Below, piece after piece: positions 1 to 11,964 of a stretch of 11,964 nucleotides of DNA. Every line of letters starts with the position of its first letter. The first letter of the stretch is position 1. The notes under the pieces were generated by a model. The model saw only the letters and a list, made by a program, of their open reading frames with translations, did no database searches and had not been told where the DNA came from. The stretch covers positions 1-11,964 of the forward strand of contig JAGHAM010000015.1 in assembly GCA_021161465.1 (NCBI GenBank), in the 5' to 3' direction. The DNA comes from Candidatus Iainarchaeum sp. (GTDB lineage Archaea; B1Sed10-29; WALL01; JAGHAM01). Position numbers and translations under genes: made by a program.

Positions 1-2148
1 GTCTGTGGTAATGATATCTGTGAGTCTGGGGAAAATGAACAAAATTGTCCGGAGGATTGTTCGGGGTGTTCTTCTGGGGGAGAATCCTGCTCAACCACCA
101 GTGATTGTTGTTCTGGACTAACTTGTTGTGGTGGAGCCTGCAAAAAGAGCAATGGAGCAGGCTGCTCTGGTAGTTGGCAATGTTGTTCGGGGCATTGCTG
201 TGATGGGACATGTAAAGACAACTGTGGAGGGGCCTTTTGTGGCAATAGCATATGCAATACTCTCTTAGGCGAGAACTGTAATAATTGCCCTGAGGACTGC
301 GGTCAGTGTTGTGGGAATGGTTGGTGCAATACAATATGGGGAGAAAGCTGCAGCAACTGTCCTGAGGATTGTGGGAAATGTTGCGGAAATGGTCGCATCG
401 ATGAAGGAGAGAACTGTAGGAACTGTCCTGAGGATGTAGGACAGTGCACTGGTGTGTGTGGAGATGGTACATGTGATTCAAGCGCCACTGGTGGAGAAAC
501 ATGTTCAACCTGTAGGAAGGACTGTTGCCCATGCAACCATAATAACAACTGTGAACCGGCACAGGGAGAAACAACATTGAACTGTGATGACTGCCAAGAT
601 GACATAGAGTGCGGGAATGGGATATGCGAACCTGGGGAAACAGAACAAATATGCCCTGCCGACTGCATGTGGGTGTGTGGAAATGGAGTATGTGAAAGAA
701 CAAAAGGCGAAGACTGTGACTCCTGTGTGGAAGACTGTTGTTCTAACTCAACGTGTAATAATGGTAGATGTGACTCTGAAGATTGCTTTTATTGCCCAAA
801 TGAGTGCACATCTAGGGGATATCAGTGCTGCGCCCCTGGGTATAGTTATCATAAGTGCAGGAATGACGAGATTTGCTGTGACGACCAATGCTGTGATAGC
901 GCAACACAATCTTGTGTAGTTGGAAAATGCACAGATATATGGGCATACTGTGGCAGCACAAAGTATAACACCAATGAAGAACGATGTTGCGAAAGTCAAC
1001 AAGAATTCCACACTTGTAGTAAAGACGAGTCATGTTGCGGCATGACTTGCTGTGGAGATAGCGAGCAGTGTATTGATGGACAATGTTGCCCCCAGGATAA
1101 GTCATGTGGTCCTGTTTGCTGTGGAGAAAACCAGCAGTGTTGCGGTGGGTACTGCTGTCCAATTGGAACCAGTTGTTGCGCACCTGGTGTTTGCTGTGAG
1201 AAAGGGAACTCCTGCAACGAGCAATTAGGTAAATGTGAAAAGAATTCGAAGTGTGGGGACGGCAACTGTGATGTTAGCATCGGTGAAAATTGTGCAACCT
1301 GTTCTGAAGATTGTGGGAAATGTTGTGGAAATGGTCAATGCGAAGAAGAGTTCGACGAAGATTGTCTCAACTGCCAAAAAGATTGTGGAAAATGCTGTGG
1401 GGATGGAATTTGTGATTATCCATCTGAAACAGCGTCCAGTTGCCCAGAAGATTGCTTTGGTTGTGGAGACGGTATCTGCGAGGACACCGAGAACTGTCAC
1501 ACCTGCAGTGTAGATTGCATATGTAAAGGAGCTACTGAATGCAGGGAAACAGAAACCGCTGGCGTTTATGACTGTGTTGAGAAGAACACTTGTGGCGACC
1601 ACAAGTGCCAACGATGGTATGGAGAGAACGAAACCAATTGCCCAACAGACTGTAAATTTGAAGGAACATGCGGAAACGAAAAATGTGAGAAAGAAATTGG
1701 TGAAAATTGTGAGAATTGTATAGCAGATTGTAAATGTGGAGATGGTTTTGTCTGCGAGGATGGGACGTGCGTAACTGCACACTGTGGAAATGGACTCTGC
1801 GAGCAGTACAAGGGTGAGAGCTGCCAGACCTGCCCAGACGACTGTGGAACGTGTTGTGGAGATGGTGTATGTGAAAGCTCTGCTGGTGAGAACTGTATGA
1901 ATTGTCCCATGGATTGCAACACTTGTTGTGGAGATGGATTTTGCGATGCTGGACTTGGCGAAACCTGCGCTACATGTGCGGAGGATTGTGGGACGTGCTG
2001 TGGGGATGACTACTGTGATATCCCATTAGGTGAAAATTGTAAGAATTGCGCGGAGGACTGTGGTCAGTGTTGTGGGAATGGCATCTGCGATAGCGACCTA
2101 GGGGAGAACTGCCTAAATTGCAGAACCGACTGCAAAACATGCAAAACC
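1..2148 (+). repeat. Tandem Cys-rich repeat array (about 20 units) with CC-ladder inserts
   Basis: Protein-level repeats of about 22-25 residues follow the order CG[ND]GxC, about four residues, GE[NS]C, xxC, PxDC, GxC. The clearest units are at 236-378, 1249-1380 and 1783-2148. The last five, from 1783, are almost perfectly phased. Irregular stretches at about 70-235, 760-1245 and 1510-1600 interrupt the array. Units differ in their non-Cys positions, so most of the array is old, although some DNA blocks are nearly identical. Confidence 0.85.
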
Positions 2149-3201
2149 GATGAAAACGATTTAAAGCCACCGAAACAGTTCGGCTGGATACCACCAGACA
2201 ACTCTATAGTTCTCCAGTCATTTGACCTGAAGTTTAATCTGGACGAGCCAGGTGCATGCAAGTGGTGTGAAAATGATTACAATTACAGCCAGTGCGGCCA
2301 CAGATGTATAGGGGACGGAACGAAAAATATCCTATGCCATATTGAAGGATTACAGCTCGGCAACGTTAAAGTCCACATAACCTGCAAGGACCTCTCTGGG
2401 AATGCTGACACTGGCAAGTCAAACACTGATTTATCGTACTTCGTTGTAGAACGCTTCGACAACCTGAACTACTCAGATACTGATTTGATTAACTCCAGCA
2501 AGGACTGGCTGTTGTTCTCACCAAATGCAACAGTCACCAAAGAAAGCCAGGGCAAGAAAGCTGAGGAAGAGGTCGTTCCGGGGATGGTCATAGACATAAA
2601 CAAAATCGGCTCTCCAGAAAAAAAGAACGAGACAGGAAACCTGCTCGGTAGCGGTGGTTTTGGAAAGTACCTCCCACTGCCAGTTAGACAAACGTTAGGC
2701 TCAATCTTGAACGCCTTGCCCTTACCAATAAGGGAGAATTTCGGCGGTATCAGCTACGCTATGATTATCCTAGCTCTGGTAGTCGCAGCTGTCCTTCTGG
2801 TTTATGCACCAAAGAAGGGGAGGGAGATAGCAGCTGAGAAGCTTAAGGAGAGAGAGAAAGAGGGAAAAGCGCAGAAGGTTAGCGAACTTGAGGCGAGGAA
2901 AGTTGAGTTAAGGAAGAAGCTGCTAAACCTAAGGGAGAAAGCAGTTGCGGGTCTTACGGCAAAACAAATCGCACAGAGAAAGGCATACACTGAGGAACTC
3001 CATGAAATTGAGGACAAGCTGTTGAAAGAGGATGACTACTTAGATGAGTTGAATGTACGCGTTGACAAAGCTCTCGAGCAAGCTAAAAAAGGCATCCCAA
3101 GCAAGGAAATCATGAAGCAACTTGTTGAAGAAGGCTACACCAAGAAAGAGATTGAAATCATAAAGAGGGCCTTCCAGAGAAGAAAAGTAAAAGATAATTA
3201 A
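1..3201 (+). CDS. Giant Cys-rich surface protein, C-terminal membrane anchor (5' partial)
   Basis: The reading frame is open from base 1 to the TAA at 3199-3201 (1066 residues visible); the start lies left of the window, and the GTG at 454 is only an internal valine. Residues 1-714 hold about 158 cysteines by my count, roughly one in 4.5. They form about 20 repeats of the type CG[ND]GxC, GENC, xxC, PxDC, GxC, broken by CC-ladder segments. Residues about 720-820 are a Cys-containing Ig-like beta domain with sequons (NYS, NSS). Residues about 918-936 (AMIILALVVAAVLLVYA) are one membrane helix followed by KKGRE, giving N-out/C-in topology. The tail, 938-1066, is a charged coiled coil ending in a PSKEI..EEGYTKKEI motif, also present in the protein at 9272-10483. 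It probably acts outside the cell as a disulfide-rich stalk or adhesin; this is inference from architecture, and no enzymatic motif is visible. Confidence 0.9.
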   Translation, partial: VCGNDICESGENEQNCPEDCSGCSSGGESCSTTSDCCSGLTCCGGACKKSNGAGCSGSWQCCSGHCCDGTCKDNCGGAFCGNSICNTLLGENCNNCPEDCGQCCGNGWCNTIWGESCSNCPEDCGKCCGNGRIDEGENCRNCPEDVGQCTGVCGDGTCDSSATGGETCSTCRKDCCPCNHNNNCEPAQGETTLNCDDCQDDIECGNGICEPGETEQICPADCMWVCGNGVCERTKGEDCDSCVEDCCSNSTCNNGRCDSEDCFYCPNECTSRGYQCCAPGYSYHKCRNDEICCDDQCCDSATQSCVVGKCTDIWAYCGSTKYNTNEERCCESQQEFHTCSKDESCCGMTCCGDSEQCIDGQCCPQDKSCGPVCCGENQQCCGGYCCPIGTSCCAPGVCCEKGNSCNEQLGKCEKNSKCGDGNCDVSIGENCATCSEDCGKCCGNGQCEEEFDEDCLNCQKDCGKCCGDGICDYPSETASSCPEDCFGCGDGICEDTENCHTCSVDCICKGATECRETETAGVYDCVEKNTCGDHKCQRWYGENETNCPTDCKFEGTCGNEKCEKEIGENCENCIADCKCGDGFVCEDGTCVTAHCGNGLCEQYKGESCQTCPDDCGTCCGDGVCESSAGENCMNCPMDCNTCCGDGFCDAGLGETCATCAEDCGTCCGDDYCDIPLGENCKNCAEDCGQCCGNGICDSDLGENCLNCRTDCKTCKTDENDLKPPKQFGWIPPDNSIVLQSFDLKFNLDEPGACKWCENDYNYSQCGHRCIGDGTKNILCHIEGLQLGNVKVHITCKDLSGNADTGKSNTDLSYFVVERFDNLNYSDTDLINSSKDWLLFSPNATVTKESQGKKAEEEVVPGMVIDINKIGSPEKKNETGNLLGSGGFGKYLPLPVRQTLGSILNALPLPIRENFGGISYAMIILALVVAAVLLVYAPKKGREIAAEKLKEREKEGKAQKVSELEARKVELRKKLLNLREKAVAGLTAKQIAQRKAYTEELHEIEDKLLKEDDYLDELNVRVDKALEQAKKGIPSKEIMKQLVEEGYTKKEIEIIKRAFQRRKVKDN
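2752..2808 (+). other. Transmembrane helix of the Cys-rich protein
   Basis: About 19 uninterrupted hydrophobic residues (YAMIILALVVAAVLLVYA) are followed at once by PKKGRE. By the positive-inside rule the Cys-rich part is outside and the last 129 residues are cytoplasmic. Confidence 0.85.
2809..3198 (+). other. Cytoplasmic coiled coil plus PSK-EEGY module, copy A
   Basis: A Lys/Glu-rich coiled coil (about 2820-3040) is followed by a compact C-terminal segment containing YLDEL, KALEQA, IPSKEI, EEGYTKKEI and IKRAFQRRK. It aligns without gaps over the last 54 residues with the tail of the protein at 9272-10483, with about 25 identities by hand count. The function is unknown. The Gly-Tyr-Thr and alternating Ile pattern suggests a small two-helix docking unit. 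Confidence 0.75.
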
Positions 3202-3230
3202 GCCCCGCTCTTTCCAACTTATCGCCAGAC

Positions 3231-3257
3231 TGTAAAGGTTAAATAACTTTCTTTACA
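3231..3257. promoter_or_regulatory. orc1 promoter: TATA box inside an inverted repeat
   Basis: TTAAATAA at 3239-3246 is a good archaeal TATA box, about 30 bases ahead of the GTG at 3273. It sits between perfect 7-base arms TGTAAAG (3231-3237) and CTTTACA (3251-3257), and the core GTTAAATAAC is itself nearly palindromic. This arrangement could be an operator for a dimeric repressor, or for Orc1 itself. Confidence 0.55.
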
Positions 3258-3272
3258 AAAGAGTAAAACACA

Positions 3273-4487
3273 GTGGGGTGTCTAGTTTTGGACTTATTTG
3301 AACAGGAGTTGAAAAAGGAGACACTTTTTAGAGACCGGAATGTCCTTAGCCCTCACTATGTGCCAGACCATCTTCCACATAGGGAAAAAGAGATAAACAG
3401 GATAATGAAGATACTCGCCCCTGCTCTATCACAGAAGCACCCAAGCAACTTATTTATATACGGCAGCACGGGAACTGGCAAGACTGCCACTACAAAATAC
3501 GTGCTTAAAAAACTCATTGAAGTTAGGGAGAAGTATGGAGCAAAAGTTGACTCTGTTTACTTGAACTGCAGAACCTATAACACGAAGTACCAGGTGATGC
3601 TGAAACTAGCACAGCTTGCGGCTCCAGAGGAAAACCTCATGGGTTATGCGTTTTCGCACCTATACGAGAAATTCACAAACTATGTTAACTCTAAAAGAGT
3701 CATATTCATTGCAGCTCTAGATGAAATAGACAAAGTCAAGGATTTAGATGAACTGCTATATTCACTAACTCGTGCAAATGATATCTTAGAATCAGGCCAC
3801 GTGTGCATAATAGGCATATCAAACAGGGTTACCTTCAAGCAAAAGCTTGACCCTAGGTCAAAGTCAACACTTTGCCAGGAGGAAATGATATTTCCACCAT
3901 ACAACGCTGAACAGTTGAAGGCCATTCTACTTGAGCGATGCAAGGAAGGTCTTAAAGAGAAGACGTATACAGAAAGTGCGGTTGCCCTTGCCGCAGCCTT
4001 CGCAGCCAGAGAATCTGGTGACGCTAGATATGCACTAAGGCTTATACTGAAAGCTGGTGAGCTTGCGGATGAAGAAAGCAAAAAAGTAGTGGAAGAATAC
4101 GTGAAGAAAGCAAGGGCTGCCGTCGAGGAAGACGTAGTGGTTGAACTGATAAATACGCTTCCACAACACCAGGCAATAGTGTTATACGGCATCGCGCTTC
4201 TCAGTGGGAAGGATGGAAAATACAAGAGACTTGCTGAAGAGCCACCCGGGAAGGACAGAGTACTATTCTCAGGGGAGGTTTATGAAGAGTACAAGGACCT
4301 TTGCAAGAGGTGGGGCCTCCAACCCAGAAGTGCACGGTGGTTCAGGGAATACTTGAACGAACTGGAGATGATGGGCCTGATTACAACTATGATATCTGGC
4401 AAGGGTGTCAGGGGCAACACACGGCTCATAAAGATGGCATTCCCAAAGGAAAAAATAATAGGTGCGCTTGAAAAGAAGCTCCACTGA
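3273..4487 (+). CDS. orc1/cdc6: Orc1/Cdc6 replication initiator (AAA+ ATPase with winged helix)
   Basis: Archaeal origin-recognition and helicase-loading ATPase, 404 aa, the usual length. Visible motifs: N-terminal DLFEQELKK..LFRDRNVLSPHYVP..LPHRE typical of the family; Walker A GSTGTGKT (64-71); Walker B with DEID (150-153); sensor 1 GISN (181-184); LDPR with the likely Arg finger R195; FPPYNAEQL (208-216); sensor 2 SGDARYAL with R253; then a C-terminal winged helix (about 300-395) with YEEYKDLC, SARWFREYLNELEMMGLI and GKGVRGNTRLI. All ATPase residues look intact. Start choice: GTG at 3273 fits a near-leaderless transcript from the TATA at 3239. TTG at 3288 is a strong alternative because GGGGTG (3275-3280) lies 7 bases ahead and the protein would then begin at DLFEQEL, as in homologues. 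Its own promoter and the AT-rich gap downstream suggest an adjacent origin. Confidence 0.96.
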   Translation: MGCLVLDLFEQELKKETLFRDRNVLSPHYVPDHLPHREKEINRIMKILAPALSQKHPSNLFIYGSTGTGKTATTKYVLKKLIEVREKYGAKVDSVYLNCRTYNTKYQVMLKLAQLAAPEENLMGYAFSHLYEKFTNYVNSKRVIFIAALDEIDKVKDLDELLYSLTRANDILESGHVCIIGISNRVTFKQKLDPRSKSTLCQEEMIFPPYNAEQLKAILLERCKEGLKEKTYTESAVALAAAFAARESGDARYALRLILKAGELADEESKKVVEEYVKKARAAVEEDVVVELINTLPQHQAIVLYGIALLSGKDGKYKRLAEEPPGKDRVLFSGEVYEEYKDLCKRWGLQPRSARWFREYLNELEMMGLITTMISGKGVRGNTRLIKMAFPKEKIIGALEKKLH

Positions 4488-4490
4488 AAT

Positions 4491-4540
4491 GTGCAAAGAG
4501 TGCCGGGTGGTGCAAAAGACGCCAGTGAGGTGCAAGAAAT
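4491..4540 (+). repeat. Three iteron-like direct repeats
   Basis: GTGCAAAGAGTGCC (4491), GTGCAAAAGACGCC (4510) and GTGCAAGAAAT (4530) start 19 and 20 bases apart, about two helical turns. They begin four bases after the orc1 stop codon. The first two match over most of their length (GTGCAA, purine-rich, GCC, GTG); the third keeps only the first part. Confidence 0.5.
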
Positions 4541-4807
4541 AGGTTTCCTCTCCCCTATAAATCCACCCAGCAAGTTATTTCTGTAAAAAGAGGTATATAT
4601 TAGTTCCTATTTATTAAAATAACACCATATAACCGCTTTAGTCTAAATACTGGTATGTAAAACCCGTTTTAGCCATAAAAGGCAACATAAGCAGTTTGTT
4701 TGAACCTTAACTTTAACTCTCGTTCTGTATTTATTTTCTAGCTTAAATCGGCTCAATAAAACAAACGCGCATGTAAATAGAGTAATTGTTTAAAAATAAG
4801 GATATGT

Positions 4808-4830
4808 ATCAGCGGAAACCGACAGGAAAC
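4808..4830 (+). other. ORB-like element (candidate Orc1 binding site)
   Basis: CAGCGGAAAC (4810-4819) differs at one position from the CAGTGGAAAC core of the archaeal origin recognition box. A shorter second half-copy, CAGGAAAC, follows at 4823-4830. CCGCTG at 4861-4866 repeats the first part in inverted orientation. The G-rich tail of a full ORB is not clear, so this is a mini-ORB at best. Confidence 0.4.
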
Positions 4831-4831
4831 T

Positions 4832-4921
4832 TCAAGAAAGAATTAAAATCGCTATAGAAACCGCTGCTATCGCAATAGAGCCAAATACTCCAGTTAAATT
4901 CCACTTATTCAAATCCCCCAC
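4832..4921 (-). CDS. Possible 29-aa single-helix membrane micropeptide
   Basis: GTG at 4921-4919 opens 29 codons ending in TGA at 4834-4832. A short polar N-terminus (MGDLNKWNLTG) is followed by the hydrophobic stretch VFGSIAIAAVSIAILILS to the end, resembling a tail-anchored single helix. A second start, TTG at 4912, is preceded by the Shine-Dalgarno-like AGGTGGGGG. TATA-like CTATAAGT lies at 4948-4941, and the palindromic TATA region at 4964-4977 could also serve this strand. No homologue is recognised. A short hydrophobic ORF in AT-rich DNA can arise by chance, so the call is tentative. Confidence 0.35.
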   Translation of the reverse strand: MGDLNKWNLTGVFGSIAIAAVSIAILILS

Positions 4922-4963
4922 CTGAATAGATTATGCACAAACTTATAGAAAAACCTTTGCATA

Positions 4964-4977
4964 AATATTTAAATATT
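4964..4977. promoter_or_regulatory. Palindromic TATA region ahead of the 163-aa gene
   Basis: AATATTTAAATATT is a perfect 14-base palindrome. Its TTTAAATA (4968-4975) is centred about 26 bases before the ATG at 4998, the spacing expected for a leaderless archaeal transcript. Because it is symmetric it could also start transcription leftward, toward the minus-strand micro-ORF. Confidence 0.65.
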
Positions 4978-4997
4978 GGGAGTCTTGAACTAATTGG

Positions 4998-5489
4998 ATG
5001 GGCTCAGCTAGCAGTGAAAGAATCCTTGCCAGAGAAGAACATAATGCATTGTATGATAGATCTATCGAAGAGCACAGGCGCCCAAAGTTTAAGGACATAC
5101 AGACAATCACAAAAGTGCGAGCTTTCTCGGACCTGTTTGGTGTTAACTCAAGGAGCAAAATTAAAGAGGCATCTCTAAACTTTCTAAAGGATGTGGATAG
5201 GTTAAGGAAAACTATCAGAGTGGACGGGAAACCAATCAGCCATAGAGAGTTCATTGAGCGGGTTGTGAAGAGGGAGTATAGAGAAAGACCGGAAGGTGAG
5301 CCTTACATAAAGAAGGTAGTATCTACACTAGCAGACGTCCAGATTGATGGGTTACATGGGAAAGACCTTGAGGTAGAACTCTCTAAACACGACATCTTAA
5401 GGGCACTAACACACTACAAGAACATAATGGGACTCAACCATCTGGAAACTGCTGTAAAACACTTGCTGGAAAATCAATCAAACCGATAA
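4998..5489 (+). CDS. Uncharacterised charged helical protein, 163 aa
   Basis: I do not recognise this family. The protein is soluble, with no signal peptide or membrane helix and no cysteines seen. It is rich in Arg, Lys and Glu and is predicted mostly helical by eye. Notable stretches are RAREEH-like polar sequence at the N-terminus, KVRAFSDLFGV (about 39-49), KDVDRLRKTIRVDGKPISHREFIERV (about 64-89) and a C-terminal helical part with HDILRALTHYKNIMGL and LETAVKHLLENQ. The ATG at 4998 is about 26 bases after a strong TATA box, which supports a leaderless start. It lies across the candidate origin from orc1 and converges with the next gene, overlapping it by 16 bases. The basic helical character would suit a nucleic-acid-binding role, but no known motif proves it. 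Confidence 0.75.
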   Translation: MGSASSERILAREEHNALYDRSIEEHRRPKFKDIQTITKVRAFSDLFGVNSRSKIKEASLNFLKDVDRLRKTIRVDGKPISHREFIERVVKREYRERPEGEPYIKKVVSTLADVQIDGLHGKDLEVELSKHDILRALTHYKNIMGLNHLETAVKHLLENQSNR

Positions 5490-8260
5490 AGTTTCTTCCT
5501 TCCTGCACGCTCATAAAATTTCACATCTGGGTTCCTTCTCAAGAAATGATTCACCTGTTTCTCTACATCAATCCGCCTGCCGCTCACTTGCTCACCATAT
5601 ACTTGCTCAAGGACCCTGTAGACACCAGCGCCGTGGAAGCTCCCATACCTATCTTGGATTCTGCGCGCAACTTCCAGAACCAGCTGTTCCTGCTCGACCT
5701 CGCTCGCTGGGAATTCTGCCCAGCGCTCTTTGAGATTCAAGAAATCAAAACTTTTTGACTTGGTCATGAGTGGTCTTGCCCTTAGAACCACAACCAACAG
5801 AAGCGCTACAAAAACCGCAAAAGCTGGGACAAAAACAGAACGACCAGTTAACAAACCTGTCTCAATGTTATTGTGGTCCTCTGCAGAAGCATTAGAAGTG
5901 TAATTTGGCTCTGCGTCATCCACAGAGTCTGGTATGGGTTCTGGTATAAGCTCATTAGTAGTGGTCCTTACTGGAGTAATTTCGCTATTGTTATCCAATG
6001 AGTGGGTAGTGTTAAATTCTGTGGTTGTATTGGTGTCAACGACCTTCGACGTGCCCTCAACCACTACTGGACTGCTAGAGCCTCCACCATATCCGCCACC
6101 AGAAGGATTATGTGGTTGTGGAGAAGCAACAGCATAAGATGCCTGTGATGTGACCCATGTAAAACCATCGGAAGCATTAACTTTACAGGTGAATATGTCA
6201 CCTGGGGACATCTCCTCATCATGCACAATGGTACTATTTGAAAAGTATCTATCATTTTTTAGCCAGTACTGACTCACATCCAGACCGTCGTTATCTGGAT
6301 CCACAGCGGTATAATCACATACTATTGAATGTGTCTCCTTTATTGCTAAGTTTAGCTGTGGAGGCGCGTTCCCTATCTCAACAGTAGCGTTCACTTGCTC
6401 TCCATTTTCCAGGCCATCATTTAGAACCAGCCCGCATGTAATATTGTCCCCTCTAACAAATGACCCAGCAGCCAGTGTACTACTATTTTCATCAAGAAGG
6501 ACACCATTCTTAAACCAGCTAAATGAAGGCTTGGTTTCCTGGCCTTCCTCATTTGAAACATTAGTTACCTCACAATCCAAACCAGTGAGTGTATTTGGCT
6601 TATCTGGTTTGATTCTTGCATCGTAGGTAGGTATGAGATTTATCCTAACTACTTTCTGCACCAGTTGCTCGTTCCCGACTGAATCTTTGGATAGATAAAT
6701 CAGGTAATTGTCACCGCGTGTCAGGAATGTGATATTCTCCCCGTCATTCACTGGTGCATCCGGTGTGCAAGAGCCATTGCTATCAATACAATAAGTTGTT
6801 GTAACATTGCCATCGTGGGAGTCGTTTTCATAAATGGTGATATTATATCCAGGTGGGTGGATTAGGCCGTCATACGAGTCCGTTGTGTTGGGGGGCGTTA
6901 GGTCCACAAAGACTGTCGCACTAGCATGGTTCTCCTGTATATTTCCAACGTCATCCATGAACTCAACGAAAACAGCTCTCCAGCCATCACCCTGCCCACA
7001 GTTAGGAACGGTTGAAAATCTGAAACCATCGTAACTTGTTGAGTAGTTGGCCCAGTCAGACGAGTTCAAACCATCCTCAGAGCATGCAAACCTCATAAAG
7101 GACGCACCTGTTGAGTTGGTATGTATTAGTGGGTTGTCGCCAGTAAGGTTACTATAGTTCTCTACAGAAAGCCAGCCTACAGTTGGGGGCGTAACATCTG
7201 TTTCGAAATCGTCTTGAATCTTGATTGTATTTAACCCGTCATCGACCAGACAGTAAAAAGTGTGGTTGGCTGTATCCTTTGGGAGTTCTGATGAGCAATT
7301 AAAGCTGAAATTGCCTCCAGATTCCCCAGAAGCTGAACAGATGGATAAGTTGTCTATGTAGCAAAATGCACTTAGGTTCTGCCCAAAATCCAAGTCCTCA
7401 AGTTCAACGTACCATATGCCCTCTGCTCCGCCGCGCGCTTTTGATATGTTCGTAACATAAATTAAAGCAGGTGGATAATCTTTCACCGTCGCATTGATGG
7501 CATAGGTTTTCCCACACTGGCCGAACGAATCGCAAGGAGTGTACTCAACGCGCACTAAATCGCCAATGGACAGGTTGATATCAATCTCGGTAATGTTCTC
7601 AGCCACAAGTTCATCATTCAAAAACCATAGTAAAGATGAATTCCCCTCCAAGTCGCCATCTCTGTCATCAAAGCCTTTTTTAAGCACCAGGTTTGAATGC
7701 GTAAAAAGAGGGTCTGGCAACTGGGGCACTGCTGTTGGAAACCAGTTGTAGTTGTAATTTATTGAGTCAACAAAGAGCTCTGCTATGTCGCCAGCTCCAT
7801 CGCTACCACCCTGCGCGCTGCACCAGAGCTTAACCTGTTTTGTTGATGGATTAAAATAGTCTGAGGACAAATCCCAATAGTTTTCACCCTCGGAACCACA
7901 TGGGCCTAAATCGGTCCAAGAAGAAGTTCGATAATTCCACGCCCATACCCCATTATGCCAGCCACTTCCCGTCCCACTACATCCAGCTCTAATGCCTTTC
8001 ACATCTTGCCAGTCGCCCAAAAAGCCATCCCATGTGAAGGCAACTGTGATGGAAGCATCATTGGTTTTATATTCGCACCATGAAGATAGGTCATCTCCCC
8101 TCAATTTCTCATCTATGCATTCATCAGCATAAAGCACATTGTATGTTTGGGTCAAACCTGGTGAAACATCGCTCCACTTGTGAAGCACACCCGTATGGGC
8201 AAAAGCTGAAGCGAGAAACATGCACAGCATGAAAATTTTAACTAACTCTCCCCCTTTCAT
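5474..8260 (-). CDS. Ig-like surface glycoprotein with cytoplasmic winged-helix-like tail
   Basis: A 928-aa exported single-pass membrane protein. ATG at 8260 is chosen over the longer frame from 8365 because it gives a signal peptide (MKGGELVKIFMLCMFLASAFA, cleavage near 21/22) and has GGTGGTG (8274-8268) 7 bases upstream. Residues about 22-180 look like a Cys-containing beta-sandwich. Then come several Ig-like domains; at least three share a W-x-x-N ... GD-[IL]-[TV] pattern, two with a following Cys, and two contain TPP linkers. There are more than 25 N-x-S/T sequons, then a Gly/Ser hinge (GGGYGGGSSS) and a Thr/Asn-rich stalk. One membrane helix (about 808-826) is followed by RARPLMTKSK. 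The 102-residue cytoplasmic tail ends in three helices plus a hairpin (DVKFYERAGRKKLYRF), like a winged helix. The ligand is unknown. Confidence 0.9.
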   Translation of the reverse strand: MKGGELVKIFMLCMFLASAFAHTGVLHKWSDVSPGLTQTYNVLYADECIDEKLRGDDLSSWCEYKTNDASITVAFTWDGFLGDWQDVKGIRAGCSGTGSGWHNGVWAWNYRTSSWTDLGPCGSEGENYWDLSSDYFNPSTKQVKLWCSAQGGSDGAGDIAELFVDSINYNYNWFPTAVPQLPDPLFTHSNLVLKKGFDDRDGDLEGNSSLLWFLNDELVAENITEIDINLSIGDLVRVEYTPCDSFGQCGKTYAINATVKDYPPALIYVTNISKARGGAEGIWYVELEDLDFGQNLSAFCYIDNLSICSASGESGGNFSFNCSSELPKDTANHTFYCLVDDGLNTIKIQDDFETDVTPPTVGWLSVENYSNLTGDNPLIHTNSTGASFMRFACSEDGLNSSDWANYSTSYDGFRFSTVPNCGQGDGWRAVFVEFMDDVGNIQENHASATVFVDLTPPNTTDSYDGLIHPPGYNITIYENDSHDGNVTTTYCIDSNGSCTPDAPVNDGENITFLTRGDNYLIYLSKDSVGNEQLVQKVVRINLIPTYDARIKPDKPNTLTGLDCEVTNVSNEEGQETKPSFSWFKNGVLLDENSSTLAAGSFVRGDNITCGLVLNDGLENGEQVNATVEIGNAPPQLNLAIKETHSIVCDYTAVDPDNDGLDVSQYWLKNDRYFSNSTIVHDEEMSPGDIFTCKVNASDGFTWVTSQASYAVASPQPHNPSGGGYGGGSSSPVVVEGTSKVVDTNTTTEFNTTHSLDNNSEITPVRTTTNELIPEPIPDSVDDAEPNYTSNASAEDHNNIETGLLTGRSVFVPAFAVFVALLLVVVLRARPLMTKSKSFDFLNLKERWAEFPASEVEQEQLVLEVARRIQDRYGSFHGAGVYRVLEQVYGEQVSGRRIDVEKQVNHFLRRNPDVKFYERAGRKKLYRFD
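5477..5782 (-). other. Putative cytoplasmic winged-helix domain of the Ig-like protein
   Basis: The last 102 residues lie inside by topology. Predicted by eye: helix EQLVLEVARRIQDRY, helix GAGVYRVLEQVYGE, helix IDVEKQVNHFLRRN, then a strand-turn-strand VKFYERAGRKKLYRF with basic residues in the turn. The order H-H-H-wing and the basic wing suggest DNA binding, but this is a fold guess without a named family. Confidence 0.45.
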
Positions 8261-8348
8261 AAAAACACACCACCATATAGTGGTTACATTTCCTGTTTTC
8301 CCAAATAAAAACTTTTTGGTAATTTTTGCATAAAAATAAGATATCCGC
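8261..8348 (-). promoter_or_regulatory. Promoter and leader of the Ig-like surface protein
   Basis: Minus-strand TTTTTATTT (about 8312-8302) is a TATA candidate that would place the start of transcription near 8280 and leave a leader of about 20 bases. The leader contains the Shine-Dalgarno-like GGTGGTG (8274-8268). A short hairpin ACCAC (8284-8280), six-base loop, GTGGT (8273-8269) would cover part of that site. Read-through from speB is equally possible. Confidence 0.4.
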
Positions 8349-9194
8349 TTACTTCCCGAAAACATAACTAAGAAGGGAGTAAATCAGCTTAGCGGTTGTG
8401 AAATCAGGGGCGTGCAAGCCCTTAATCGGGCAAAGCTCAACAACATCAAATCCAACTATCCTTTTCTTTCTAGCTAGCTCGGAGAGAAAACCCATCACAT
8501 CATACCAACCAAGGCCGCCGGGCTCTGGAGTACCAACAGAAGGTATCAACGAAGGGTCAAACACATCTAAGTCGATTGTAACGTAAACCTTCTTTGATAA
8601 AAAGCCGAGGGCATCCCCGTACCAATTTTTACGACCAATTATGTCCCTAGCCAGAAACACTCTGGAGAGGTCAGCCGCCTCCACTTCCTCCTCATCTGCA
8701 CTCCTTATGCCAACTTGGACTATGTTATCAACAAGTTCATTCACCCTTGCCATGACACAGGCATGGTTAAGCTTACTGCCCATATACTCATCACGTAAAT
8801 CCAGATGCGCATCCAGCTGCAGAACTGACAGCTCGCTGAATTTCTCGGCGTGTGCCTTCACCAAGCCTACTGAAACAGAATGCTCCCCTCCCAAGCCGAC
8901 CACAAACTTACCGTCATCCAGCAAACCCTTTGCCAGTTTGTATGTCCTATCCACAAGCTCCCCTGGTGTCTTAGCCACAACTGGTGGTGAAGTATAGATT
9001 CCCCTCTCAGCTACATTTGTGCCAGTGGCTATATCATACATCTCCATGTTTGCAGAAGCCTTAATTACTGCAGAAGGCCCCTTAGACGAGCCTTTAATCC
9101 AGCTGCTGGTCCTATCGAACGGTATCGGTAACACTGCTATCCTAGATGTTGAATAGTTTGAGAATTCCTTGCTGATACCACCAAAACGTCCCAT
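8349..9194 (-). CDS. speB: Agmatinase family ureohydrolase (SpeB-like)
   Basis: Mn-dependent ureohydrolase of 281 aa, normal length. It likely hydrolyses agmatine to putrescine and urea, or N1-aminopropylagmatine to spermidine as in some thermophilic archaea; sequence alone cannot separate these. Metal-binding motifs are complete: GGEHS (102-106, His105), DAHLD (128-132), DLDVFDP (208-214) and the late E253 in FDVVELCP. DLRDEYMGSKLNHACVM (131-148) resembles archaeal agmatinases and supplies the substrate-loop His144. The ATG at 9194 is preferred to an upstream in-frame TTG at 9203: it is about 28 bases from a TATA-like CTAATAAA (9226-9219) on the minus strand. It is divergent from the gene at 9272. 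The next gene on the same strand follows after 88 bases and is functionally unrelated as far as can be seen. Confidence 0.93.
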   Translation of the reverse strand: MGRFGGISKEFSNYSTSRIAVLPIPFDRTSSWIKGSSKGPSAVIKASANMEMYDIATGTNVAERGIYTSPPVVAKTPGELVDRTYKLAKGLLDDGKFVVGLGGEHSVSVGLVKAHAEKFSELSVLQLDAHLDLRDEYMGSKLNHACVMARVNELVDNIVQVGIRSADEEEVEAADLSRVFLARDIIGRKNWYGDALGFLSKKVYVTIDLDVFDPSLIPSVGTPEPGGLGWYDVMGFLSELARKKRIVGFDVVELCPIKGLHAPDFTTAKLIYSLLSYVFGK

Positions 9195-9271
9195 AGCTTT
9201 CAATTATGTCTGGTTTTGTTTATTAGAATTTGTAGAAAAGAATTTAAAGACCTAATTCCTCATCTTCAACT
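9195..9271. promoter_or_regulatory. Divergent promoter between speB and the 403-aa surface protein
   Basis: This 77-base gap holds two TATA-like elements. CTAATAAA on the minus strand (9226-9219) lies about 28 bases from the speB ATG. AATTTAAAG on the plus strand (9241-9249), preceded by the purine-rich GAAAAG as a possible BRE, is centred about 27 bases from the ATG at 9272. Both spacings fit leaderless transcripts. Confidence 0.6.
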
Positions 9272-10483
9272 ATGAGAAGACTCGTTGTGACGATGCTTAT
9301 GCTTGCCCTTCTGTCAGCTACTGCAATGGCTGAAAGCGCGGTGAAAAAGGACGACTTTGTGGTGAGAGCAAGCGCGCTTCCAACCAAGGTTGATAGCTGG
9401 ATATTCGTTAAGGGAGGGAAACCGGTCTACAACGTAAGCTTGAAATTCAGCAATGTTCCTGATGGCATAAAACTCAAAGAGGATAACACTAAAATCGTCC
9501 CTTATATCACCCCTGCAAGCATGTTTAAGTTAACCTGGAAAGCAATAGCTGAGGCAAACAAGACATATAACCTAACAGATGCATTTGAGGTAACCTCATG
9601 GGACAACTCTGTTTCCTTAACAGCATTTCTCATCAAGGACAATGTAACCACCAACGAAACCGTTACCACCGGCAACCCAGAAGTTTCCATCTACGGGAAG
9701 ACCGATGGTGAAGAATTCTGCGACTACATGAGAAGTCTTCCAGGTGAAGAAAACAATAGTATGTGGAGCAGGGATGATGTATGCCGAGTAAAGATACGCA
9801 TAAACAATGACGAGCCCTTCTACGCTAACGAAAGCGGGATTTTCTTTGGGAAAACCAAGCTTACCAAGCACGGCATTAACGAGATAAATGTAACCGCGAC
9901 AGATGCAGGCGGGAACACCAACACAGTCACATTAGAAGTTAACTACACTGGTGGAGTAGCTGAAGCCGCCCCCACGCCACCGATGGATATCATGCTGGTT
10001 GTTATAGCGTTGGTTGGACTGGCCCTTGTCCTTGGCGTTGTTGGCGGAGTGGTTTTCTTCTTTATGAAAAAGAAGCCTGCAAGCAAGAAGAAAGAAAAAG
10101 CCGAAGTAGGGGAGAAAGGTGTTAAAGCAAAACCATCAAAGCCGATTAAAGAATTAAAGAAGACGCCGAAGGGTATTGAGGCTATGAAGAAAAGAAAGGA
10201 TGAATTGAAGAAGAGGTTAGATGAGCTCTCAGAGAAGAAGAATTTGACAACCGAAGAAAAAGAGGAAAAAATCAGAATAGCTAACGAGCTGGATGATATC
10301 GTTGACAAGCTTCTGGCCAACGATGAATACCTGTTCAAGCTTGAGGAGCGCGCCTTCAAGGCTTTAGTCGACGCGCGTGAAGGCAAGCCCAGCAAACAGA
10401 TAAAGGAAGAGCTAATTGATGAAGGATACACCGCGCGTGAAATAAGCAAGATAAGGGAGTTCTTTGTAAGAGGTAAGAAATAG
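9272..10483 (+). CDS. Secreted single-pass membrane protein sharing the coiled-coil tail module
   Basis: A 403-aa protein with a clear signal peptide (MRRLVVTMLMLALLSATAMA, cleavage near 20/21). The ectodomain (about 21-230) is beta-rich, with several sequons (NVS, NKT, NLT, NVT, NET, NNS, NES). It ends in an Ig-like segment (HGINEINVTATDAGGNTNTVTL). A short AAPTPP linker leads to one membrane helix (238-265) followed by KKKPASKKKEK, so the C-terminus is inside. The tail, 266-403, is a Lys/Glu-rich coiled coil closing with YLFKLEERA, KPSKQIKEEL and DEGYTAREISKIREFF, homologous to the tail of the Cys-rich protein at 1-3201. The two ectodomains look unrelated, so the tail is a shared module. 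Only two cysteines occur, both in the ectodomain (CDY, DVC) and possibly paired. No enzymatic motif; the role is likely adhesion, S-layer linkage or sensing. Confidence 0.9.
   Translation: MRRLVVTMLMLALLSATAMAESAVKKDDFVVRASALPTKVDSWIFVKGGKPVYNVSLKFSNVPDGIKLKEDNTKIVPYITPASMFKLTWKAIAEANKTYNLTDAFEVTSWDNSVSLTAFLIKDNVTTNETVTTGNPEVSIYGKTDGEEFCDYMRSLPGEENNSMWSRDDVCRVKIRINNDEPFYANESGIFFGKTKLTKHGINEINVTATDAGGNTNTVTLEVNYTGGVAEAAPTPPMDIMLVVIALVGLALVLGVVGGVVFFFMKKKPASKKKEKAEVGEKGVKAKPSKPIKELKKTPKGIEAMKKRKDELKKRLDELSEKKNLTTEEKEEKIRIANELDDIVDKLLANDEYLFKLEERAFKALVDAREGKPSKQIKEELIDEGYTAREISKIREFFVRGKK
10067..10480 (+). other. Cytoplasmic coiled coil plus PSK-EEGY module, copy B
   Basis: Begins right after the membrane helix. 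A long Lys/Glu coiled coil (RKDELKKRLDELSEKK and onward) leads into DKLL, DEYL, KAL, GKPSKQI, DEGYTAREI and F.RGKK. The matching positions in copy A (2809-3198) are RKVELRKKLLNLREKA, DKLL, DDYL, KAL, GIPSKEI, EEGYTKKEI and F.RRK. The central part also aligns without gaps from the LT pair onward. Confidence 0.75.
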
Positions 10484-10498: not shown

Positions 10499-10523
10499 TC
10501 TTGTTGTAATAGTTGTTTAATTG

Positions 10524-11964
10524 ATGAATAGACACATACTCTTTGAACTTCTAGTATTTTCTTCTCTAGTTCTCCAGATAGCTGCCAGCGAAACTATCTT
10601 CAGTGACGCTTTTGAACCCATAACAGACAATTGGAGTACCAGCGGAAGTGTCAAAGTAGTTGGTAAATACACGCCGCATTATGGGAGTGTGTGGCTCCCA
10701 AATTATCAATACCCAAAAGGAGGCTTACTTGATTCAACACGGAGACAGCTGCATTTTAGTTGCAATTCAAGTGCTACTTTAGATCTCAATTTTGGGAATA
10801 AGTATTACAAAGACATAACAATAGATTTTTGGAGGGCAGTTAGGAACGTTGAAACAGTAGATGAATGTCTTACCCTAAGTTGGAAAGGGGACATGTGGCA
10901 CAATAGTGTTTGGAAAAGATGTGGAGTAGGTCACGACAACATTGCAGATGAATATGGTTATGTTTCCACAAATGGAGACCTAGATTCACAGGCTGGCCAT
11001 GTCACCAAGGTTCTCTCTAGTTCGACACTAAACAAAATTAAGATTAAGTTTGAATTTAGAGGTTATGGTAGCAATCCTGACGCAGATGGTGGATTCATAG
11101 ATGAATTGAAGGTATCTGGGGATCTAGCCTACGATTGCTCAAAAGAGGATGAATGCCAAACGGAAGGTGAGAAGAGATGTTCTGGAAACACTGTGCAGGA
11201 GTGTGGAAACTGCGATAATGACCCGTGCCTTGAATGGTGTGATGTTGAAACTTGCACTTCAACAGACCCGTGCAACGAAAGCTTCTGTGATGACGGGAAG
11301 TGCGTGACTAAAGAAAACTGTAGTTTAGCCAGTTGTACATCCGCCGCAACCACTTATTGCAACCATAAAAACTGCCACTGCAACGATGACAAACAAAACT
11401 GTGATGAGACTGGGATCGATTGCGGGGGTAGTTGCGAACCATGTGGTGGGGATATCAACGATGGCCTCCCTTGCGAGAAGGATAGTGATTGTATAAGCAA
11501 CCGCTGTGATTTAGGAGACACAGGGAAATGCTTCCATTGTGCTATCTGCCCTGGTACATCTGAACCGGATGCTGTCACTAGTTGTTCAAACCAAGAACCT
11601 GGTGAGTGTGAATACCAGTGTGGTGCAGATCAAGCCTGCGATGATAAACTGATGAACTCGCACTGGATTTCCGACCAGGCGTGTAGAAGTTGTAAGGATT
11701 GCTTGTATAGCAGTGATGACACTGTTGATTTGTGTAGTTGCAGCGCGAGTAACTGTTCCGGCGGTTACTGCGACTCCGGGGACACATGTTATTATGGTGT
11801 GGAGTGCGGTATCGATGGATGGAGTTACAATAGTACATGTTCTACTGCTGATTCATGTGATGCTAATACGCTTGTAACAGGGAAGACCTGCGGTGCTGGT
11901 GGTTGCAGCTCTGGAGCTACGTACACTTGTGACGACACAACGCACACAAACTGCCAGAAGGTAA
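10524..11964 (+). CDS. Secreted Cys-rich protein with N-terminal beta-sandwich (3' partial)
   Basis: The frame is open from ATG 10524 to the right edge, giving 480 complete codons without a stop. Residues 1-21 form a signal peptide (MNRHILFELLVFSSLVLQIAA). Residues about 22-202 look like a jelly-roll or lectin-type beta-sandwich: it starts TIFSDAFEP.TDNWST and ends GGFIDELKVSG, a pattern common in extracellular laminin-G or MAM-like domains. From about residue 205 the protein turns Cys-rich. This part includes the recurring extracellular module QNCDETGIDCGGSC-EPC (about 292-308), known from many secreted bacterial and archaeal proteins, then looser Cys spacing rich in Ser, Thr and Gly. It lacks the GENC repeats of the protein at 1-3201, so it is a different Cys-rich architecture. 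A membrane anchor and tail would lie beyond the window. Its role is probably cell-surface binding. Confidence 0.85.
   Translation, partial: MNRHILFELLVFSSLVLQIAASETIFSDAFEPITDNWSTSGSVKVVGKYTPHYGSVWLPNYQYPKGGLLDSTRRQLHFSCNSSATLDLNFGNKYYKDITIDFWRAVRNVETVDECLTLSWKGDMWHNSVWKRCGVGHDNIADEYGYVSTNGDLDSQAGHVTKVLSSSTLNKIKIKFEFRGYGSNPDADGGFIDELKVSGDLAYDCSKEDECQTEGEKRCSGNTVQECGNCDNDPCLEWCDVETCTSTDPCNESFCDDGKCVTKENCSLASCTSAATTYCNHKNCHCNDDKQNCDETGIDCGGSCEPCGGDINDGLPCEKDSDCISNRCDLGDTGKCFHCAICPGTSEPDAVTSCSNQEPGECEYQCGADQACDDKLMNSHWISDQACRSCKDCLYSSDDTVDLCSCSASNCSGGYCDSGDTCYYGVECGIDGWSYNSTCSTADSCDANTLVTGKTCGAGGCSSGATYTCDDTTHTNCQKV

What the first reader, a model, noticed from the sequence alone, without database searches (positions are those of the whole stretch)
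2809..10480. Two unrelated ectodomains share one cytoplasmic tail module
The tails at 2809-3198 and 10067-10480 are homologous. The last 54 residues align without gaps at about 25 identities, and the coiled coil before them also matches (RK-x-EL-x-K-x-L start, LT pair, DKLL). One ectodomain is a Cys-repeat stalk, the other a beta-rich glycoprotein. A conserved inner end behind variable outer parts suggests a common cytoplasmic partner or scaffold, possibly a family of surface receptors or anchors encoded across this genome.
Basis: partly seen in the sequence, partly recalled or inferred. Interest (0 to 1): 0.7.

Follow-up and report, generated by a model that had tools for sequence, protein, structure and literature searches.

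The report
Archaeal surface proteins sharing one tail
In a small archaeon, at least eight different surface proteins with very different outer parts end inside the cell in the same folded helical tail, found in only two of 394 archaeal genomes sampled, which suggests that one internal machinery holds or reads many different outer parts.

Summary
The two tails are homologous (43/103 identical, E 2e-18; Z 14 against shuffles that keep the hydrophobic pattern). The same ~110-residue tail ends eight single-pass proteins in this 0.98 Mb archaeal genome. Seven more are in the one other genome held from its family, and it was detected in full in none of 392 other archaea. A third window gene (10521-11963, cut by the contig end) is probably another member.

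The outer parts fall into about five classes, and one paralog (C37b) joins the stalk and beta types end to end. Homologs of these outer parts exist without this tail: elsewhere in the order with unrelated tails, and in this genome with a 12-residue inner end. So the tail is a module added to particular surface proteins, not a general anchor.

AlphaFold2 folds it confidently (pLDDT 90): a helical hairpin, a third helix, and a terminal two-helix unit. That last unit is a short motif common beside archaeal membrane helices. Two paralogs share its 121 bp at 97.5% although the DNA just upstream is about 50% identical, which suggests recent gene conversion.

A common cytoplasmic partner is the best explanation but is inferred. 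Oligomerisation through the tails is the main rival. No partner was identified.

The parts
1..3201 (+). Tail gene C36a, 5' end cut by the contig: Cys-rich repeat stalk (164 Cys), Ig-like domain, linker, one TM helix, tail
   Evidence: ortholog g1_C21b in G001, 46.5% identical ectodomain
2746..2802 (+). Transmembrane helix of C36a
   Evidence: hydropathy
2869..3198 (+). Tail core of C36a (110 aa): five predicted helices at residues 2-25, 31-53, 55-73, 78-87, 92-109
   Evidence: AF2 pLDDT 90.3
3063..3183 (+). 121-bp tract 97.5% identical to paralog C37a (contig C37), covering the terminal two-helix unit; probable gene conversion
9272..10483 (+). Tail gene C36b: signal peptide, two beta-sandwich domains (E2 ectodomain), TM, low-confidence linker, tail
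9356..9946 (+). E2 ectodomain of C36b; its second domain resembles glucodextranase domain B / bacterial Ig
   Evidence: 1ug9, Z 8.1, 80 residues, rmsd 2.9
9983..10066 (+). Transmembrane helix of C36b
10166..10480 (+). Tail core of C36b, five predicted helices
10521..11963 (+). Open ORF C36c, probable further tail gene; ectodomain homologous to tail proteins C37a and g1_C26b; 3' end not in the contig
   Evidence: position after C36b matches g1_C26b after g1_C26a
11850..11964 (+). 115-bp exact match to contig C37 1408-1522, at which the contig ends (assembly break)

Best explanation
The tail is a folded cytoplasmic module that connects at least eight, probably nine, different surface proteins to one common binding site inside the cell (a scaffold, positioning or sorting protein). 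SHOWN: it is homologous in all copies, follows a single TM helix, is predicted to fold as a helical hairpin plus a terminal two-helix unit, is specific to one archaeal family, and was joined to ectodomain types that elsewhere occur without it. INFERRED: the tail is on the cytoplasmic side (N-terminal signal peptides where the start is known; Cys and most N-glycosylation sequons outside; Lys/Arg-rich start of the tail). INFERRED: the terminal two-helix unit is the contact site, because it holds most invariant residues and is the stretch exchanged between paralogs. INFERRED: all members bind the same partner. The nearly ectodomain-less member (C3a / g1_C26d) would be a base subunit or regulator of that assembly.
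For: 15 tails in two genomes, none decayed; all-against-all similarity of tails while ectodomains split into groups; supported ortholog pairs (best 100/98) show that diversification preceded the split of the two genera, so the tail was kept on each protein type. The E2 ectodomain recurs in six other genomes of the order; the tails read there are not detectably related to this tail, and the two used as queries occur on no other protein of their own genome. In this genome and in G001 a protein with the same Ig-like domain has one TM and only ~12 inner residues. Confident fold. Recent homogenisation of the terminal unit.
Against: No partner is known. Conserved positions are mostly hydrophobic or glycine, so they may reflect fold rather than a docking surface. 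The gene-conversion tract is one case and could be affected by short-read assembly. Gene neighbourhood gives no consistent partner: sepF adjacency is explained by an insertion between cdc6 and sepF.
Confidence: 0.5

Rival explanations
1. The tails bind each other. The helical hairpins form homo- or hetero-oligomers, so that different surface proteins assemble into mixed complexes, and the ectodomain-less member C3a is a filler or nucleating subunit.
For: Helical hairpin with long helices; an ectodomain-less member beside an E2 member in both genera; tandem gene arrays on C37 and C26.
Against: The most conserved part is the terminal two-helix unit, not the hairpin; no dimer model could be run here.
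Confidence: 0.27
2. Passive inheritance. One tailed gene was duplicated and its ectodomains were replaced or diverged; the tail persists without a common function.
For: Several members share an ectodomain type (E2 in C36b, C37c, C3b and part of C37b), consistent with plain duplication.
Against: Different ectodomain families carry it, while relatives of those ectodomains outside the family have other tails. It is intact in all 15 copies across two genera, and a tract at its end was homogenised.
Confidence: 0.16
3. The tail is a targeting or quality-control signal that places these proteins at one site, for example the division plane, since two members lie beside sepF.
For: Divergent sepF-tail gene pair conserved in both genera.
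Against: In 15 of 17 genomes of the phylum with sepF the neighbour is cdc6. Here cdc6 lies by another tail gene, so the adjacency reflects an insertion between the two, not an old functional link.
Confidence: 0.07

Closest known systems
Giardia variant-specific surface proteins (VSPs) (PMC6115752)
   Same: Single-pass, Cys-rich surface proteins with variable outer parts and one conserved inner end
   Different: The VSP tail is five residues (CRGKA), not a folded ~110-aa domain. VSP outer parts are one family linked to antigenic variation; here outer parts are of about five kinds. No common ancestry is suggested.
Clustered protocadherins (PMC4660814)
   Same: Many ectodomains share one constant cytoplasmic part
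   Different: The constant part is joined by splicing to cadherin ectodomains; here each gene encodes its own copy of the tail, with apparent gene conversion.
Short archaeal juxtamembrane two-helix motif (G-x-[ST]-x-x-[ED]-I-x3-L-x3-G-[YF]-[ST]-x-x-E-I; unnamed in the libraries searched)
   Same: The last ~45 residues of the tail match it; hits in 27 of 150 archaeal genomes
   Different: Elsewhere it usually sits N-terminal of the TM helix or free-standing, without the hairpin
TM-coil-motif protein of G078 (L056 1423-1794)
   Same: TM helix, charged coil, two-helix motif at the C-terminus, like the ectodomain-less C3a
   Different: Match only E 3e-5, a single match in its genome, no ectodomain-bearing paralogs found

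Membership tests
Shared-tail family proposed here | ~110-aa tail with hairpin and terminal two-helix unit | tested here: met
   15 copies, E 5e-28 to 1e-41 with profile A2 (the copies are rows of the profile, so see also the independent single-sequence search); AF2 fold
Shared-tail family proposed here | One TM helix directly before the tail | tested here: met
   for 14 members; C3b TM
Shared-tail family proposed here | Outer parts of several unrelated kinds | tested here: met
Any Pfam-A or NCBIfam family (tail) | Score above the curated cut-off | tested here: not met
Archaeal juxtamembrane two-helix motif | G-x-S-x-x-E-I-x3-L-x3-G-Y-T-x-x-E-I over ~45 aa near a membrane helix | tested here: met
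   alignment A4; last ~45 aa only
Giardia VSP | CRGKA C-terminus | tested here: not met
   tails end otherwise
Giardia VSP | Mutually exclusive expression | not testable with these tools
   no expression data
Clustered protocadherins | Cadherin repeats in the outer part | tested here: not met
   no cadherin match for C36a, C36b or C37a in Pfam
Known PDB fold (tail) | Significant fold match over the whole tail | tested here: inconclusive
   Foldseek best E 1.6; VIA Z up to 8.7 to generic helical hairpins

The most novel reading that the evidence does not exclude
An archaeal surface-display system in which many different receptors or adhesins plug into one intracellular adaptor through a common tail, with the docking end of the tail kept alike by gene conversion between paralogs: an archaeal counterpart, independently evolved, of the constant-inside, variable-outside receptor families of eukaryotes.
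Probability: 0.33. Interest if true: 0.75.

Novelty: new variant of a known kind. Interest (0 to 1): 0.55.

Why it matters
It makes the partner question testable: a small, soluble-looking, confidently folded bait recurs on at least eight proteins of a 1-Mb genome. Constant-inside, variable-outside receptor families are well known in eukaryotes; no archaeal example was found in the papers searched, though that search was limited. The restriction to one archaeal family, with related ectodomains outside carrying other tails, shows the module being added to existing surface proteins over a short evolutionary span.

Tried and rejected
(1) Random Lys/Glu coiled coil: rejected by pattern-preserving shuffles and by the genome search returning only tail proteins. 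(2) SepF or cell-division partner from gene neighbourhood: rejected as an insertion between cdc6 and sepF. (3) Generic anchor needed by all surface proteins: rejected, since a related ectodomain in the same genome ends 12 residues after the TM. (4) Distant homology of the E2 tails of other genomes to this tail: hhalign probability about 4% or less; one weak hmmsearch score for G002 with high composition bias. (6) Viral relatives by exact-pattern scan: none. (7) Tail fold against PDB: only generic helical hairpins; this does not show a new fold. (8) Literature searches found no archaeal precedent. My first hydropathy script misread the frame of C3b; corrected.

Full report
CHECK OF THE OBSERVATION. 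The window is the whole of contig C36 of a 976,286-base archaeal genome in 40 contigs. To exclude a generic Lys/Glu coiled coil I built a profile from the seven tails of another genome only and scored the two window tails against 5000 shuffles each that keep every hydrophobic and polar position. C36a scores 128.0 bits against a shuffle maximum of 49.8, and C36b scores 97.1 against 28.9. The direct pairwise score lies 14 standard deviations above such shuffles. A single-sequence search of the genome returned eight places at E 7e-10 or better and nothing else up to E 1, so other coiled coils of the same genome do not match.

A FAMILY, NOT A PAIR. Eight proteins of this genome end in the tail: C36a and C36b (window), C2, C3a and C3b (tandem), C37a, C37b and C37c. 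Seven more are in G001, another genus of the same family: C21a, C21b, C26a-d and C57. All have one strong TM helix just before the tail, and nearly all of those whose start is known and that have an outer part also have an N-terminal hydrophobic signal. Apart from one Cys in g1_C21a, the tails have no Cys; they are rich in Lys and Arg, while Cys and most N-glycosylation sequons lie outside, so the tail is inferred to be cytoplasmic. A third window gene (10521-11963) runs off the contig. Its visible part is homologous to the ectodomains of tail proteins C37a and g1_C26b, and it follows C36b as g1_C26b follows g1_C26a. The contig stops in a 115-bp exact repeat shared with C37a. It is probably the ninth member.

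OUTER PARTS. By all-against-all BLAST the tails are nearly all mutually similar. The outer parts fall into groups: a Cys-repeat stalk with an Ig-like domain (C36a, C21b); a two-domain beta sandwich, here called E2 (C36b, C3b, C37c, C26c, C57); a second Cys-rich type with its own N-terminal domain (C37a, C36c, C26b, C21a); an Ig/Fn3-like type (C2); and practically none (C3a, C26d). C36a and C36b outer parts show no similarity to each other, but C37b (1743 aa) carries Cys repeats, the Ig-like domain of C36a and the E2 module of C36b in one chain. The outer parts are therefore modular combinations rather than wholly separate inventions. AlphaFold2 of full C36b (mean pLDDT 72.7, moderate) shows signal helix, two beta domains, TM 238-265, a low-confidence linker and the tail. 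The second beta domain is closest to glucodextranase domain B (Z 8.1 over 80 residues, a middling value).

DISTRIBUTION. The full-length tail is found in 2 of 394 archaeal genomes sampled, both of the same family, and in 2 of 19 of the phylum. Only the last ~45 residues match widely elsewhere: a short two-helix motif beside membrane helices or in free small proteins in 27 of 150 archaeal genomes. So the tail consists of a family-specific hairpin plus a widespread terminal motif. The E2 outer part occurs in six other genomes of the order. The proteins read there have one TM and a helical-looking tail, but those tails are not detectably related to this one (hhalign probability about 4% or less), and the two used as queries (G002, G007) are not shared with any other protein of their genomes. 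Conversely, in this genome and in G001 a protein with the same Ig-like domain as C36a ends about 12 residues after its TM (L134, L139). The tail is thus neither necessary for anchoring nor an automatic companion of any outer part. This is the main evidence that it is a functional module.

EVOLUTION. Supported ortholog pairs in the tail tree (C36b/C26a 100/98; C3b/C26c 91/95; C3a/C26d 91/88; C36a/C21b 89/86) show that the family diversified before the two genera split. Gene order agrees for the pair next to sepF and the member next to the pilin-like gene. In 15 of 17 genomes of the phylum with sepF, cdc6 is its divergent neighbour (cdc6 recognised by its C-terminal sequence); in G000 and G001 tail genes lie at sepF instead, and cdc6 lies by another tail gene (window 3273-4487, after C36a). 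An array inserted between cdc6 and sepF explains both, so adjacency to sepF should not be read as a division role. Between C36a and C37a the last 121 bp are 97.5% identical (window 3063-3183), although the preceding tail DNA is 40-57% identical and the tails of orthologs between genera are 36-53% identical in protein. This looks like recent gene conversion, and it covers the terminal two-helix unit. A short-read assembly effect cannot be fully excluded, because the tract is shorter than a typical read; however, three internal mismatches show that two distinct copies exist.

STRUCTURE. AlphaFold2 with the 15-row alignment gives pLDDT 90.3 and five helices: 2-25 and 31-53 (hairpin), 55-73, then 78-87 and 92-109 (terminal unit). 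Seven positions are invariant in all 15 (L51, L61, G75, L85, Y90, I98, F102) and six nearly so; most are in or beside the terminal unit. PDB comparison gives only generic helical hairpins (Foldseek E above 1; VIA Z 8.7 or less), which by the tool's own guide is not informative for helical proteins. No Pfam, NCBIfam or natural PDB-sequence match names the tail.

MECHANISM. Best supported: different surface proteins are attached by a common tail to one cytoplasmic binding site. Shown: shared homologous tail predicted to fold, single TM, modular gain, retention on the members across genera. Inferred: sidedness, the terminal unit as the contact, and identity of the partner across members. The main rival is tail-tail association into mixed complexes with C3a as base subunit. 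Passive inheritance is less likely because the tail was retained on all members and joined to unrelated outer parts.

LIMITS. Only two genomes, both fragmented assemblies, carry the family. The organism could not be named. Tail conservation exceeds ectodomain conservation only modestly between orthologs: 50.0 against 46.5, 50.9 against 35.6, 43.0 against 38.4, 36.1 against 29.7 and 37.8 against 27.9 percent. The literature check covered open-access papers only.

Noticed in passing
window 5474-8365 (-): 963-aa single-pass protein with a long sequon-rich outer part and a different ~100-residue inner end ('...GVYRVLEQVYGEQVSGRRIDVEKQVNHFLRRNPDVKFYERAGRKKLYRFD') without Pfam or NCBIfam match; possibly winged-helix-like.
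   Followed up: no
window 3273-4487 (+); L065 and L070 (sepF loci): cdc6 is the divergent neighbour of sepF in 15 of 17 genomes of the phylum, but in this family tail genes separate the two.
   Followed up: yes
L043 1480-1629 (+), L042 1282-2115 (+): A 49-aa free-standing protein and a TM protein of the same genome carry the terminal two-helix motif; candidates for interaction with the tails.
   Followed up: partly
L011 8811-9731 (+); L032 3-467 (-): Pilin-like genes with a class III signal sequence (QTSLEYL / QVSIEYL) lie directly downstream of tail genes C37b and C21a in both genera.
   Followed up: no
L010 1293-3099 (-): Tandem of an ectodomain-less tail protein (C3a) and an E2 tail protein (C3b), conserved in G001; C3a may be a regulatory or base subunit.
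   Followed up: partly
window 11850-11964: Contig ends in a 115-bp exact repeat of C37a, so the end of the third tail gene is missing from the assembly.
   Followed up: yes
window 8349-9203 (-): Arginase/agmatinase family enzyme (Pfam Arginase, E 4e-62).
   Followed up: no
window 4998-5489 (+): 163-aa ORF downstream of cdc6 with no significant family match.
   Followed up: no
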